Made by a program: the position numbers and the translations under genes
Assembly (NCBI GenBank): GCA_944392965.1
Contig: CALXYM010000002.1
Location: 124,001-188,000 of the forward strand
Direction: 5' to 3'
DNA length: 64,000 bases
Origin: an uncultured Spirochaetaceae bacterium
GTDB lineage: Bacteria > Spirochaetota > Spirochaetia > Sphaerochaetales > Sphaerochaetaceae
Notes under the pieces: model-generated
Seen by the model: only the letters and a program-made list of their open reading frames with translations
The model's database searches: none
What the model was told of the DNA's origin: nothing
Shown here: positions 17,164 through 21,749 of the stretch, one piece after another
Layout: each line of letters opens with the position of its first letter
Position numbering within the stretch: position 1 is the stretch's first letter

Positions 17164-17236
17164 GGGCCTATAGCTCAGCGGTTAGAGCAAAGGACTCATA
17201 ATCCTTGGGTCTTCAGTTCAAATCTGAATGGGCCCA
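17164..17236 (+). tRNA. tRNA with CAT anticodon (Ile2 or elongator Met)
   Basis: A 73-nt cloverleaf: GGGCCTA pairs with TGGGCCC, D arm GCTC/GAGC, anticodon arm AAGGA-CTCATAA-TCCTT, T arm TTCAG-TTCAAAT-CTGAA, discriminator A, no encoded CCA. The short D loop and overall sequence resemble tRNA-Ile2 (lysidine-modified CAT) more than elongator Met, but this is not certain. The 3' half is duplicated at 18395, so the gene served as an integration target. Confidence 0.9.
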
Positions 17237-17315
17237 TAATGAAACTGAAAGGTAATACAAAGCCTTTCCTTATGAAGCAAGGAGCGGTATTCCAAGGAGC
17301 CGCTCCTTATTTTAT
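17198..17315 (+). repeat. Direct repeat copy 1: tRNA 3' half plus terminator (attachment-site candidate)
   Basis: Runs from the anticodon stem of the tRNA through its 3' end and terminator. It matches 18395-18514 at roughly 85% by eye over about 118 nt, including identical GAGCGGTATTCCAAGGAGCC. A 29-nt part recurs at 20384. Duplicated tRNA 3' ends are the footprint of integration by a tyrosine recombinase or similar element. Confidence 0.8.
17279..17313 (+). terminator. tRNA terminator
   Basis: AAGGAGCGG (17279-17287) pairs with CCGCTCCTT (17300-17308), then ATTTTATT. The same hairpin with one changed base recurs in the second repeat copy (18477-18508). Confidence 0.75.
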
Positions 17316-17455: not shown

Positions 17456-17484
17456 TTGTCTAATCTGGCATTCTATGTTATATT
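17456..17484 (+). promoter_or_regulatory. Promoter of the DUF3800 leader RNA
   Basis: TTGTCT (17456-17461), exactly 17 nt, TATATT (17479-17484). A start near 17491 coincides with the first base of the GC-rich structured segment. Confidence 0.65.
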
Positions 17485-17490
17485 ACAAGT

Positions 17491-17575
17491 AGGTCGGACA
17501 CCAAGCCGAACAGGGGCGAGCCCCCGCCATAGAGCCGGAGGAAGCCTTCGGCATTTTTATTGAAGGGGCTTTGGT
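17491..17575 (+). ncRNA. Structured leader or small RNA upstream of DUF3800
   Basis: GC-rich sequence in an AT-rich setting with three hairpins: TCGG/CCGA (17494-17497, 17506-17509), GGGG-CGAG-CCCC (17513-17524) and GCCGGAGG-AAG-CCTTCGGC (17534-17552), the last followed by ATTTTT, i.e. an intrinsic terminator. The first loop, ACCAAGCC (17500-17507), can also pair with GGCTTTGGT (17567-17575) just before the start codon, masking the ribosome site AAGGGG. Conserved RNA motifs upstream of DUF3800 genes have been reported in comparative RNA surveys; whether this is one of those classes needs a covariance search. Confidence 0.6.
17534..17558 (+). terminator. Intrinsic terminator inside the DUF3800 leader
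   Basis: An 8-bp stem with one G-T pair, a 3-nt loop and five T, ending 17 nt before the DUF3800 start codon. It would yield a short RNA of about 68 nt, with DUF3800 expressed by read-through. Confidence 0.65.
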
Positions 17576-18256
17576 TTGTCTGTACTATCAATTCACATAG
17601 ATGAAAGCGGTAATCTGAATCTTACAAATAAGCAGAATCCTGAATACTGCATTACTATGATTTTCCATAATCAGAATGATGATATCTCTTCAGAGATTGC
17701 ATTTCTTGATAAGAAATTATCTGAGATAGGATGGCCTATTCCATTTGTACATACTATGCCTCTGATAAGGCAGGATGAACCGTTTGAAACTATGATGGGA
17801 TATGAAAGAAAGAGAATTTTCAATACATTCGCTTCATTCGTAAGTAAACTACCTATCTCTTACACCGTATTCTTTGCAGATAAGTCGTTTTATCAGGAAA
17901 CCAGCAAAATACAGATAGCCTATGAACATCAGATAAGAAACTTCCTAGAAAGTCATCTTGAGTTCTTTCAAAGCTTTGACAAAATCATTTGTTATTATGA
18001 CTCAGGGCAAGCAATCGTAAACCGTATATTGCAGAATACATTAGGAGATATCTTTGAAGATAGGGTTGAGTTCAGAAAGGCTTATCAGAAGGATTATAAG
18101 TTATTACAGGTTGCAGACTATATCTGCACCTTAGAACAAACAAAGACAAGGTGGGATGAAAATAGAACTACCAAATCAGAACAGAGGTTCTTTACTTCAC
18201 GTCATCTATTCATGAAGAATTATTATAGGCATATAGGCAAAAAGAAAATCAGATGA
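17576..18256 (+). CDS. DUF3800 domain protein
   Basis: 226 residues. DUF3800 is predicted to have an RNase-H-like fold. Landmarks are SIHIDESGNLN at the N-terminus (conserved DESG), KIICYYDSGQ near residue 143 and LLQVADYICTLEQ near residue 186, giving a plausible acidic metal site (Asp in DESG, YYDSG and VADY). Function is unknown; members occur in mobile regions and phage contexts. The start is TTG 17576, right after AAGGGGCTTTGG. The gene lies alone between two copies of the tRNA 3'-end repeat and is preceded by a promoter, structured RNA and terminator. Confidence 0.85.
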   Translation: MSVLSIHIDESGNLNLTNKQNPEYCITMIFHNQNDDISSEIAFLDKKLSEIGWPIPFVHTMPLIRQDEPFETMMGYERKRIFNTFASFVSKLPISYTVFFADKSFYQETSKIQIAYEHQIRNFLESHLEFFQSFDKIICYYDSGQAIVNRILQNTLGDIFEDRVEFRKAYQKDYKLLQVADYICTLEQTKTRWDENRTTKSEQRFFTSRHLFMKNYYRHIGKKKIR

Positions 18257-18394
18257 CTGAGCAATCCGTGTTACTTAAATTGTCACCAAAATTCGTATAG
18301 ATTCCTACTAATAGAGATTACAATCCATCAAATAGATTTTTACTGCAGAAAATTAAAGTATTAGTAGCTATCATTGGTTGATACTTATACGGAT

Positions 18395-18514
18395 ATAATC
18401 CTTCAGCATTTAGTTCAAATCTGAATGAGCCCATCATGAAACATGAAAGGTGATACAAAACCTTTACTTTTGAAACGAGGAGCGGTATTCCAAGGAGCCA
18501 CTCCTTATTTTATC
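18395..18514 (+). repeat. Direct repeat copy 2: partial tRNA 3' half plus terminator
   Basis: Keeps AGTTCAAATCTGAAT of the T arm, a mutated acceptor end (GAGCCCA), the post-tRNA sequence and the terminator hairpin. The anticodon arm and 5' half are missing, so it cannot be a functional tRNA. Same orientation as copy 1, 1.2 kb away. Confidence 0.8.
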
Positions 18515-18648: not shown

Positions 18649-18921
18649 ATGCAGACGAAGAAAAGCAACCTTACGATTCGCATAGAACCAGAACTCAAAG
18701 ATGAGGCCTCTGCCCTCTTCAAATCATTGGGACTAGATTTAAGTACGGCAACCGGTATTTTTTATAGGCAGGCAATCAGGTGTCATGGCCTTCCGTTTGA
18801 GGTCAAGGTAAATGAGCCAAATGAGATTACATACAAAGCAATGGCGGATGCGGAAAACAACAGAGATATGCATGGCCCATACAACAGCGTGAAGGAGTTG
18901 ATGGAGGCTCTTAATGCTTAA
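18649..18921 (+). CDS. RelB/DinJ family antitoxin
   Basis: The 90-residue protein has a ribbon-helix-helix N-terminus typical of DinJ: NLTIRIEPELKDEASALFKSLGLDLSTATGIFYRQAI (about 7-43), followed by a toxin-binding tail. DinJ-type proteins neutralise YafQ toxins and repress their own promoter. AGGAG precedes the ATG. The toxin gene overlaps its end by 8 nt, a standard coupled arrangement. Confidence 0.92.
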   Translation: MQTKKSNLTIRIEPELKDEASALFKSLGLDLSTATGIFYRQAIRCHGLPFEVKVNEPNEITYKAMADAENNRDMHGPYNSVKELMEALNA

Positions 18922-19192
18922 GCTTGAATTTACCGGGCTGTTCAAGAAGGATTATAAACTTGCCTTGAAGAGGGGCTGTAAACCAGAAAAGCTGGAAGAG
19001 GTAATCACTCTTCTATGTGAAAATAGACCTCTTCCTGAAAAATTTCGAGATCATCAATTACAGAATTCACGTAATTACAAAGGCATGAGGGAGTGTCATA
19101 TAGAACCTGCCTGGCTTCTTATATACAGAATTGTAGATGAAAGACTTATTCTAGAACTTATTAGAACTGGAACACATAGTGATTTATTCTAA
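18914..19192 (+). CDS. YafQ-family toxin with Ala at a catalytic position
   Basis: The 92-residue member of the RelE/YafQ superfamily would be a ribosome-dependent mRNA endonuclease. It keeps the family core NYKGMRECHIEPAWLLIYRI and the terminal RTGTHSDLF. Compared with E. coli YafQ, the residues matching His50, His63, His87 and Phe91 are present (His47, His62, His88, Phe92), but the position of Asp67 in the usual EPDW motif is Ala66. The toxin may thus be weakened or inactive. It follows the antitoxin with an 8-nt overlap. Confidence 0.9.
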   Translation: MLKLEFTGLFKKDYKLALKRGCKPEKLEEVITLLCENRPLPEKFRDHQLQNSRNYKGMRECHIEPAWLLIYRIVDERLILELIRTGTHSDLF

Positions 19193-21267: not shown

Positions 21268-21407
21268 ATTCCCCCATTCTACTATTTGGAATACCTTTCA
21301 GAACCCAGATGGCACATTTTTAAGACAAAAGCCAATGGAGTGTAAAAACTTGTATTACGGAAGAATCTTCTGATGTACTCGATATTTATACGATATACAA
21401 TGATTTC

Positions 21408-21749
21408 ATGACTAACGGTGTAATAGTCGATATGAAATATAACAGACAGATTATAACAGTGCGTTTCCCTATTTCAGCAATGGCTGCCAATCCTGAATAT
21501 GGAAACAGAAATTCATGGAACAGCTCACATCCTTATAAATATCAAATAGACGGTCCATTGGAAATGGATTCGAAGAAACTGTTTTTCTGGAGTTTCTATT
21601 GCTATCCAGATAATTCTGAGGCTAGTAAACTTATAACTTTAAAAGCAGGTGATTACATTACCACTCAAGGACTCTGTTCTGTCAAGGGAAAAGCAGCTAT
21701 TCTTAGGAGCAAAAATAATATAAATCAATCATACGGGACATGGAAATAA
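21408..21749 (+). CDS. Hypothetical protein
   Basis: A 113-residue frame starting at ATG 21408, without a clear ribosome site. The sequence (IVDMKYNRQIITVRFPISAMA at the start, KLITLKAGDYITTQGLCSVKGKAAIL later) looks strand-rich, perhaps a small OB-like fold, but I do not recognise a family. It has no opposite-strand competitor apart from a 25-nt overlap with the convergent Fic gene. It may be a real orphan gene of the accessory region or a remnant. Confidence 0.45.
   Translation: MTNGVIVDMKYNRQIITVRFPISAMAANPEYGNRNSWNSSHPYKYQIDGPLEMDSKKLFFWSFYCYPDNSEASKLITLKAGDYITTQGLCSVKGKAAILRSKNNINQSYGTWK

What the first reader, a model, noticed from the sequence alone, without database searches (positions are those of the whole stretch)
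17456..18256. DUF3800 gene preceded by its own promoter, short structured RNA and terminator
Seen directly: a TTGTCT-17-TATATT promoter, a GC-rich leader beginning at the predicted start site, three hairpins, the last an intrinsic terminator at 17534-17558, then AAGGGG and the TTG start of a DUF3800 protein. Loop ACCAAGCC (17500-17507) can pair with 17567-17575 and hide the ribosome site. The order promoter, RNA, terminator, protein is that of type III toxin-antitoxin systems, and conserved RNAs upstream of DUF3800 genes have been described in comparative surveys. DUF3800 has an RNase-H-like fold, so an RNA-guided, RNA-inhibited or RNA-processing nuclease is a reasonable hypothesis. The cassette sits between duplicated tRNA 3' ends, so it moves as a unit.
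Basis: partly seen in the sequence, partly recalled or inferred. Interest (0 to 1): 0.78.

Follow-up and report, generated by a model that had tools for sequence, protein, structure and literature searches.

The report
New DUF3800-partner RNA in mobile tRNA cassette
A gut spirochaete carries a roughly 1.1-kilobase mobile cassette next to a transfer-RNA gene that holds only a ~70-nucleotide structured RNA and an RNase-H-like protein, both under strong selection; this looks like a toxin/defence protein controlled by its own RNA and is a new class of a known but unexplained RNA-protein pairing.

Summary
A conserved extended -10 promoter drives a ~70-nt RNA that ends in a terminator directly before a DUF3800 gene. 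The same promoter, RNA, terminator, gene order precedes all 28 homologues I inspected. Across intact cassettes the RNA is far more conserved (median p-distance 0.11) than synonymous sites of its gene (0.73, saturated). It shows compensatory changes in all three helices and decays when the gene is lost (p = 0.006). Rfam does not recognise it, but homologues at about 30% identity carry Rfam RF02975 (DUF3800-XI), so this is a new sister class. The protein has a confident RNase-H-like model, nearest to RNase HIII/HII, with invariant D9-E10, D142 and D181. The cassette is flanked by duplicated tRNA-Met 3' halves. Three relatives have the empty site and one a decayed remnant. 18 of 46 further RNA copies lie just downstream of tRNA-Leu, -Met, -Phe or -Gln genes, and some loci stack toxin-antitoxin modules. 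Best reading: an RNA-controlled nuclease that works like a type III or AbiF toxin-antitoxin. It is not a type III member: the toxin fold differs and the RNA is a single unit. Function is inferred, not shown.

The parts
17164..17236 (+). tRNA-Met (CAU), the insertion site
   Evidence: ARAGORN, Rfam tRNA
17198..17315 (+). left direct repeat: tRNA-Met 3' half from the anticodon loop plus its terminator
17456..17484 (+). promoter; -35 TTGTCT, extended -10 TGtTATATT (TG 17476-17477, TATATT 17479-17484)
   Evidence: extended -10 conserved in 45 copies
17491..17560 (+). structured RNA of about 70 nt (class-A DUF3800-associated RNA); P1 17494-17497/17506-17509, P2 17513-17516/17522-17525
17534..17558 (+). 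intrinsic terminator ending the RNA (third helix plus U-run)
17563..17568 (+). ribosome-binding site AAGGGG
   Evidence: sequence; conserved in nearly all linked cassettes
17576..18256 (+). DUF3800 protein, 226 aa, TTG start, RNase-H-like
18257..18394 (+). conserved right end of the cassette (recombination end; possibly the 3' tail of a former integrase gene)
   Evidence: alignment of nine cassette ends; integrase not found
18395..18513 (+). right direct repeat: partial tRNA-Met 3' half plus terminator
18649..18921 (+). RelB-family antitoxin, next module in the array (context)
18914..19192 (+). YafQ-family toxin (context)

Best explanation
This is a mobile toxin/abortive-infection-like module of one RNA and one protein. 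One promoter makes a ~70-nt RNA in excess because most transcription stops at its terminator; occasional read-through makes the DUF3800 protein. The RNA, whose fixed loop and helix sequences are recognised by the protein, binds DUF3800 and keeps its RNase-H-like active site (D9-E10, D142, D181) inactive or directed. Loss or shortage of the short-lived RNA, as when transcription is blocked by a phage, would free the nuclease. The cassette spreads by site-specific recombination at the anticodon loop of tRNA genes and sits among toxin-antitoxin cassettes there. Shown: promoter, RNA, terminator, gene order; joint selection; covariation; predicted fold; mobility; neighbours. Inferred: RNA-protein binding, nuclease activity, inhibition, trigger and phage defence.
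For: Leader of the same layout before all 28 homologues printed, including distant ones with Rfam DUF3800-XI, the second DUF3800 of the same genome and a Collinsella copy beside a BREX operon. RNA p-distance 0.11 against synonymous p-distance 0.73, and dN/dS about 0.13. Compensatory changes in all three helices, 30 cells against 6.8 in shuffles (class A alone 10 against 2.0). RNA core decays when the gene is lost: mean 4.0, 5.2, 6.2 deviations in intact, damaged and orphan copies, Mann-Whitney p 0.006 intact against orphan. Conserved extended -10 promoter. RNase HIII/HII-like fold, pLDDT 92, and invariant acidic residues. Toxin-antitoxin neighbours: relB-yafQ, ParE, MazE with a PIN-like partner, and YokU-type in L043, L118, L117. 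The AbiF/RCd22 system has the same anatomy and its RNA neutralises the toxin by direct binding (PMC12373285).
Against: No toxicity, binding or cleavage data. The RNA is one unit, whereas type III antitoxins are repeats. PADLOC has no model hitting the protein. Foldseek matches to RNase H3/HII have TM about 0.4 only. Many copies are damaged, which also fits a selfish element without host benefit. The AbiF analogy rests on anatomy, with unrelated protein folds.
Confidence: 0.48

Rival explanations
1. The RNA is a required cofactor, not an inhibitor: DUF3800 and the RNA form an active ribonucleoprotein nuclease used in defence, with the RNA positioning a fixed target or activating the enzyme.
For: Near-invariant loops suit a protein-binding scaffold; DUF3800 proteins accompany Cas12a2 and type VI-F/V-A2 CRISPR loci (PMC10910872, PMC12669027); a Collinsella copy adjoins BREX; RNase-H-like fold.
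Against: No variable guide region among cassettes. Terminator-limited read-through gives RNA excess, which fits inhibition at least as well. Neighbours are mostly toxin-antitoxin modules.
Confidence: 0.25
2. The leader is only a cis attenuator or riboswitch-like element that limits DUF3800 expression; the RNA has no trans role.
For: The RNA ends in a terminator right before the ribosome site and the full leader can fold over it.
Against: P1 and P2 are conserved in sequence, not just the terminator. Different RNA classes track protein clades. No conserved antiterminator was seen; the proposed ribosome-site pairing breaks without compensation. Rfam types the related RNA as sRNA.
Confidence: 0.12
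3. RNA and RNase-H-like protein are the mobility machinery of the cassette, an RNA-directed recombinase comparable to IS110 with its bridge RNA.
For: The cassette holds nothing else; RNase-H-like fold; strong tRNA association (18 of 46 copies); empty sites.
Against: Toxin-antitoxin cassettes without DUF3800 share the same tRNA repeats. RNA loops do not change with the target tRNA in any consistent way. More than half of the copies have no complete tRNA just upstream. The cassette right end resembles a tyrosine-integrase gene tail.
Confidence: 0.05
4. The cassette is a selfish remnant with no host function; conservation reflects recent spread by an integrase acting in trans.
For: Many fragments and orphan RNAs; patchy presence, 41 of 139 genomes by protein; some copies are cut off by unrelated, insertion-sequence-like DNA.
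Against: Synonymous sites are saturated between copies while RNA and protein stay conserved, dN/dS about 0.13; this is long-term selection, not recent copying.
Confidence: 0.1

Closest known systems
Rfam RF02975 DUF3800-XI RNA (one of the DUF3800 RNA families)
   Same: Short structured sRNA with promoter and terminator directly upstream of a DUF3800 gene; proteins homologous at about 30% identity.
   Different: Window RNA has a different sequence and helix plan and no Rfam match up to E 10; its group is confined to two related genera at meaningful scores.
AbiF/RCd22 RNA-controlled abortive-infection system of C. difficile (Rfam RF03085, PMC12373285)
   Same: SigA promoter, short RNA, terminator, read-through into the protein gene; the RNA neutralises the toxin by binding.
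   Different: Protein is Abi_2 (AbiD/F family), not RNase-H-like DUF3800; RNA has two repeated motifs.
Type III toxin-antitoxin systems (ToxIN, AbiQ, TenpIN, CptIN); AvcID as a variant with a deaminase toxin
   Same: Order promoter, RNA, terminator, protein; toxin-antitoxin neighbourhood; AvcID shows that other enzyme folds can be RNA-inhibited (PMC10511110 abstract).
   Different: No tandem repeats in the RNA; protein is not of the ToxN family.
DUF3800 accessory proteins of Cas12a2, type V-A2 and VI-F CRISPR loci
   Same: Same Pfam domain, RNase-H fold with catalytic rearrangement reported (PMC10910872, PMC12669027).
   Different: Those are TPR fusions or CRISPR partners; here the protein stands alone with its own RNA.
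Bacterial RNase HIII and archaeal RNase HII
   Same: Best PDB fold matches (4py5_A, 1x1p) and a shared DE(S/A)G strand-1 motif (the motif in RNase HII/HIII is from general knowledge).
   Different: TM about 0.4, no detectable sequence relation, paired with a dedicated RNA.

Membership tests
DUF3800-associated RNA systems (Rfam DUF3800 families) | DUF3800 gene immediately next to the RNA | tested here: met
   PF12686 E 6e-7 starting about 16 nt after the RNA
DUF3800-associated RNA systems (Rfam DUF3800 families) | conserved structured RNA with covariation | tested here: met
DUF3800-XI (RF02975) | match to the covariance model at gathering score | tested here: not met
   no match for the window RNA at gathering or up to E 10; met by distant homologues
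Type III toxin-antitoxin | promoter, RNA, terminator, protein order | tested here: met
Type III toxin-antitoxin | tandem-repeat antitoxin RNA | tested here: not met
   single unit; no repeat in the leader
Type III toxin-antitoxin | toxin of the ToxN/AbiQ/CptN/TenpN family | tested here: not met
   only PF12686 found; RNase-H-like model
Type III toxin-antitoxin | protein toxic, RNA neutralises it | not testable with these tools
   needs expression tests
AbiF system | Abi_2 domain and abiF RNA motif (RF03085) | tested here: not met
IS110-like bridge-RNA elements | RNA loops matching the insertion site | tested here: not met
   P1 loop essentially the same at tRNA-Leu, -Met and -Phe; P2 loop varies by two bases and inconsistently
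IS110-like bridge-RNA elements | protein with DEDD plus transposase domains | tested here: not met
   only PF12686 in a 226-aa protein
RNase H superfamily | RNase-H fold with acidic active site | tested here: met
   AF2 pLDDT 92, top PDB matches RNase H3/HII, invariant D9, E10, D142, D181; catalytic geometry not measured
tRNA-integrated mobile cassette | direct repeats of the tRNA end and an empty site in relatives | tested here: met
tRNA-integrated mobile cassette | identified integrase | tested here: inconclusive
   not found

The most novel reading that the evidence does not exclude
The RNA and the RNase-H-like protein together form the recombination machinery of a minimal, about 1.1-kb RNA-dependent mobile element that targets tRNA anticodon loops, rather than cargo moved by an integrase in trans.
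Probability: 0.05. Interest if true: 0.92.

Novelty: new variant of a known kind. Interest (0 to 1): 0.58.

Why it matters
DUF3800-linked RNAs are catalogued in Rfam, but I found no paper in the held library that tests their function. This group gives a compact, testable case: a ~70-nt RNA and a 226-aa protein, well-delimited cassettes, natural intact and broken copies, and predicted active-site residues. If the RNA controls the nuclease, it would be an RNA-antitoxin system with an RNase-H-fold toxin, and would suggest what DUF3800 does beside CRISPR effectors.

Tried and rejected
Loop ACCAAGCC pairing with the ribosome site: intact in many copies because the sequence is invariant, but broken without compensation in L040, L055 and L059; rejected. 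An alternative RNA fold (GGAC/GUCC, GCC/GGC) chosen by single-sequence folding in several copies: GCC changes in L055 and L115 and an A-C mismatch in the window break it, whereas P1 has compensatory changes; rejected. Closing pair GG/CC around P1 and P2: 95% paired but no compensation; undecided. Variable RNA guide: loops nearly invariant; the CATG/CGAG P2 loop partly follows tRNA-Leu but with exceptions; rejected as a guide. Rfam hit for the window RNA: none. Phage or plasmid carriers: one partial phage record and one Collinsella plasmid only; none in viral contigs. Integrase sharing the cassette right end: not found. Solved relatives by sequence: none convincing. Class-wide RNA search: outside the family only weak scores below about 25 bits, treated as chance. 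Orphan RNAs as independent functional RNAs: they score lower and deviate more than linked ones, so most are probably remnants.

Full report
WHAT IS THERE. The window lies in a spirochaete genome (close relatives are labelled uncultured Spirochaetales/Spirochaetaceae). After tRNA-Met (17164-17236) comes a promoter, a ~70-nt RNA, an intrinsic terminator, a ribosome site and a TTG-started DUF3800 gene (17576-18256; PF12686). The tRNA 3' half and its terminator recur 1197-1198 bp downstream (17198-17315 and 18395-18513, 85-90% identity). The next genes are a RelB/YafQ toxin-antitoxin pair.

IS THE RNA REAL. Folding energy is weak evidence (z -1.6 for the RNA alone; -3.7 for the whole leader). Comparative evidence is strong. 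Homologues were found in 41 of 139 genomes of the family. All 28 leaders printed have the same order: promoter-like -10 (where the sequence reaches that far), hairpins, terminator, ribosome site, DUF3800. Thirty class-A RNAs align at 82% mean column identity. Counted against shuffles, standard pairs are 98.7% against 97.2% and double-sided changes 10 cells against 2.0. An alignment of 56 copies that adds seven divergent class-B relatives gives 30 against 6.8, with changes in all three helices and collapse when the pairing is slid. Cells count sequences, not independent events, so this is support, not proof. Between the 12 intact cassettes compared, synonymous sites are saturated (median p 0.73) while the RNA differs at 11% of sites and dN/dS is about 0.13. 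When DUF3800 is damaged or lost, the RNA core drifts: 4.0, 5.2 and 6.2 mean deviations over 63 positions, p = 0.006 for intact against orphan. So RNA and protein are selected together. The promoter is conserved as an extended -10 (TGCTATATTATAG) with a CTTTCC-like -35.

KNOWN OR NEW. The window RNA has no Rfam match even at E 10. DUF3800 homologues at about 30% identity, including one in a Saccharibacteria genome and others in the same family of spirochaetes, carry Rfam RF02975 DUF3800-XI above its gathering score. The second DUF3800 of this same genome shows a DUF3800-XI-like leader by eye. Other homologues carry further leader types without an Rfam match where tested (class B in L024-L025, L028; Collinsella). 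RNA type follows protein clade. The window RNA is therefore a new class within a known kind of pairing, confined at meaningful scores to two related genera.

THE PROTEIN. Invariant residues across 23 diverse homologues include D9, E10, G12, H59, R65, K103, D142, G144, Q145, Q178, A180 and D181. The AlphaFold2 model is confident (pLDDT 92, pTM 0.89). The best solved matches are RNase H3 with an RNA/DNA hybrid and RNase HII (E 1e-3 to 3e-3, probability 0.99-1.0, TM about 0.4); weaker ones include PIWI and resolvase folds. The DE(S/A)G motif on strand 1 recalls RNase HII/HIII (general knowledge). Catalysis is inferred; active-site geometry was not measured. Published work reports an RNase-H fold with catalytic rearrangement for DUF3800 next to Cas12a2 (PMC10910872) and DUF3800 accessory proteins in V-A2 and VI-F loci (PMC12669027).

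MOBILITY. The gene beside the window's tRNA-Met is conserved in 45 of 48 genomes of the genus. At the corresponding tRNA-Met, three relatives (L163, L164, L165) have the tRNA and a single terminator with no cassette in the stretch read, and a fourth (L167) has a decayed RNA remnant. At a tRNA-Leu site L115 has only an RNA remnant where L038 has an extra DUF3800 cassette. Eighteen of 46 RNA copies in fetched loci lie within 800 nt downstream of a same-strand tRNA: Leu-UAA, Met-CAU, Phe, Leu-CAG, Gln. By my estimate well under 1 in 46 is expected by chance. Several cassette right ends share a ~150-bp sequence; in one frame parts read VTK.VTK, which could be the tail of an integrase gene, but no such integrase was found. 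tRNA-Met arrays also hold toxin-antitoxin modules: relB-yafQ in the window, ParE-type in L043, MazE-type with a PIN-like partner and ParE-like in L118, YokU-type in L117. A serine resolvase gene precedes some copies.

MECHANISM. The anatomy matches systems where a terminator keeps RNA in excess over a protein it restrains. In the C. difficile AbiF system the RNA RCd22 has its own promoter and terminator, read-through makes the toxin, and the RNA neutralises it by binding (PMC12373285). I therefore favour RNA control of a nuclease-type toxin or abortive-infection protein (0.48). The rivals are an RNA-activated nuclease (0.25), cis attenuation only (0.12), a functionless selfish cassette (0.10) and RNA-directed mobility (0.05). 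Type III membership is not claimed: repeats are absent and the toxin fold differs.

WHAT FAILED. The loop-ribosome site pairing breaks without compensation in L040, L055 and L059. A variable guide is not seen. The integrase, RNA expression, toxicity and target remain open. The 2017 survey of structured RNAs (doi 10.1093/nar/gkx699, identifier from memory) is not held, so prior descriptions of DUF3800 RNAs are known here through Rfam and citing papers only.

Noticed in passing
window 18649-19192: RelB/YafQ toxin-antitoxin pair directly after the second tRNA-Met 3' repeat; tRNA-Met arrays in relatives (L043, L117, L118) stack other toxin-antitoxin modules.
   Followed up: partly
L063:2326-2395 and L063:9675-9740 (own genome, contig C28): The same genome has a second DUF3800, matched in two frames, with a DUF3800-XI-like leader, and a separate orphan DUF3800-XI RNA without a gene.
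   Followed up: partly
L038, L043, L075: Several otherwise intact DUF3800 copies carry a single TAG stop, at least two apparently at a position that is Gln or Lys in relatives.
   Followed up: no
P2 loop of RNA copies, e.g. L039:7888-7968: P2 loop is CATG in 8 of 10 cassettes at tRNA-Leu(UAA) but mostly CGAG elsewhere, with exceptions; probably lineage.
   Followed up: partly
L193:2940-3678 (Collinsella aerofaciens plasmid NZ_OY725717.1): A stop-interrupted DUF3800 with its own short RNA and terminator lies just downstream of a BREX operon.
   Followed up: partly
L042:6937-7521, L072: A serine resolvase gene sits immediately upstream of the RNA in some cassettes and may be part of a larger element.
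   Followed up: no
L129 (own genome contig C4), about 21379-21446 of the contig: Decayed class-A RNA remnant directly after a tRNA-Leu(UAA)-like gene in the window's own genome.
   Followed up: partly
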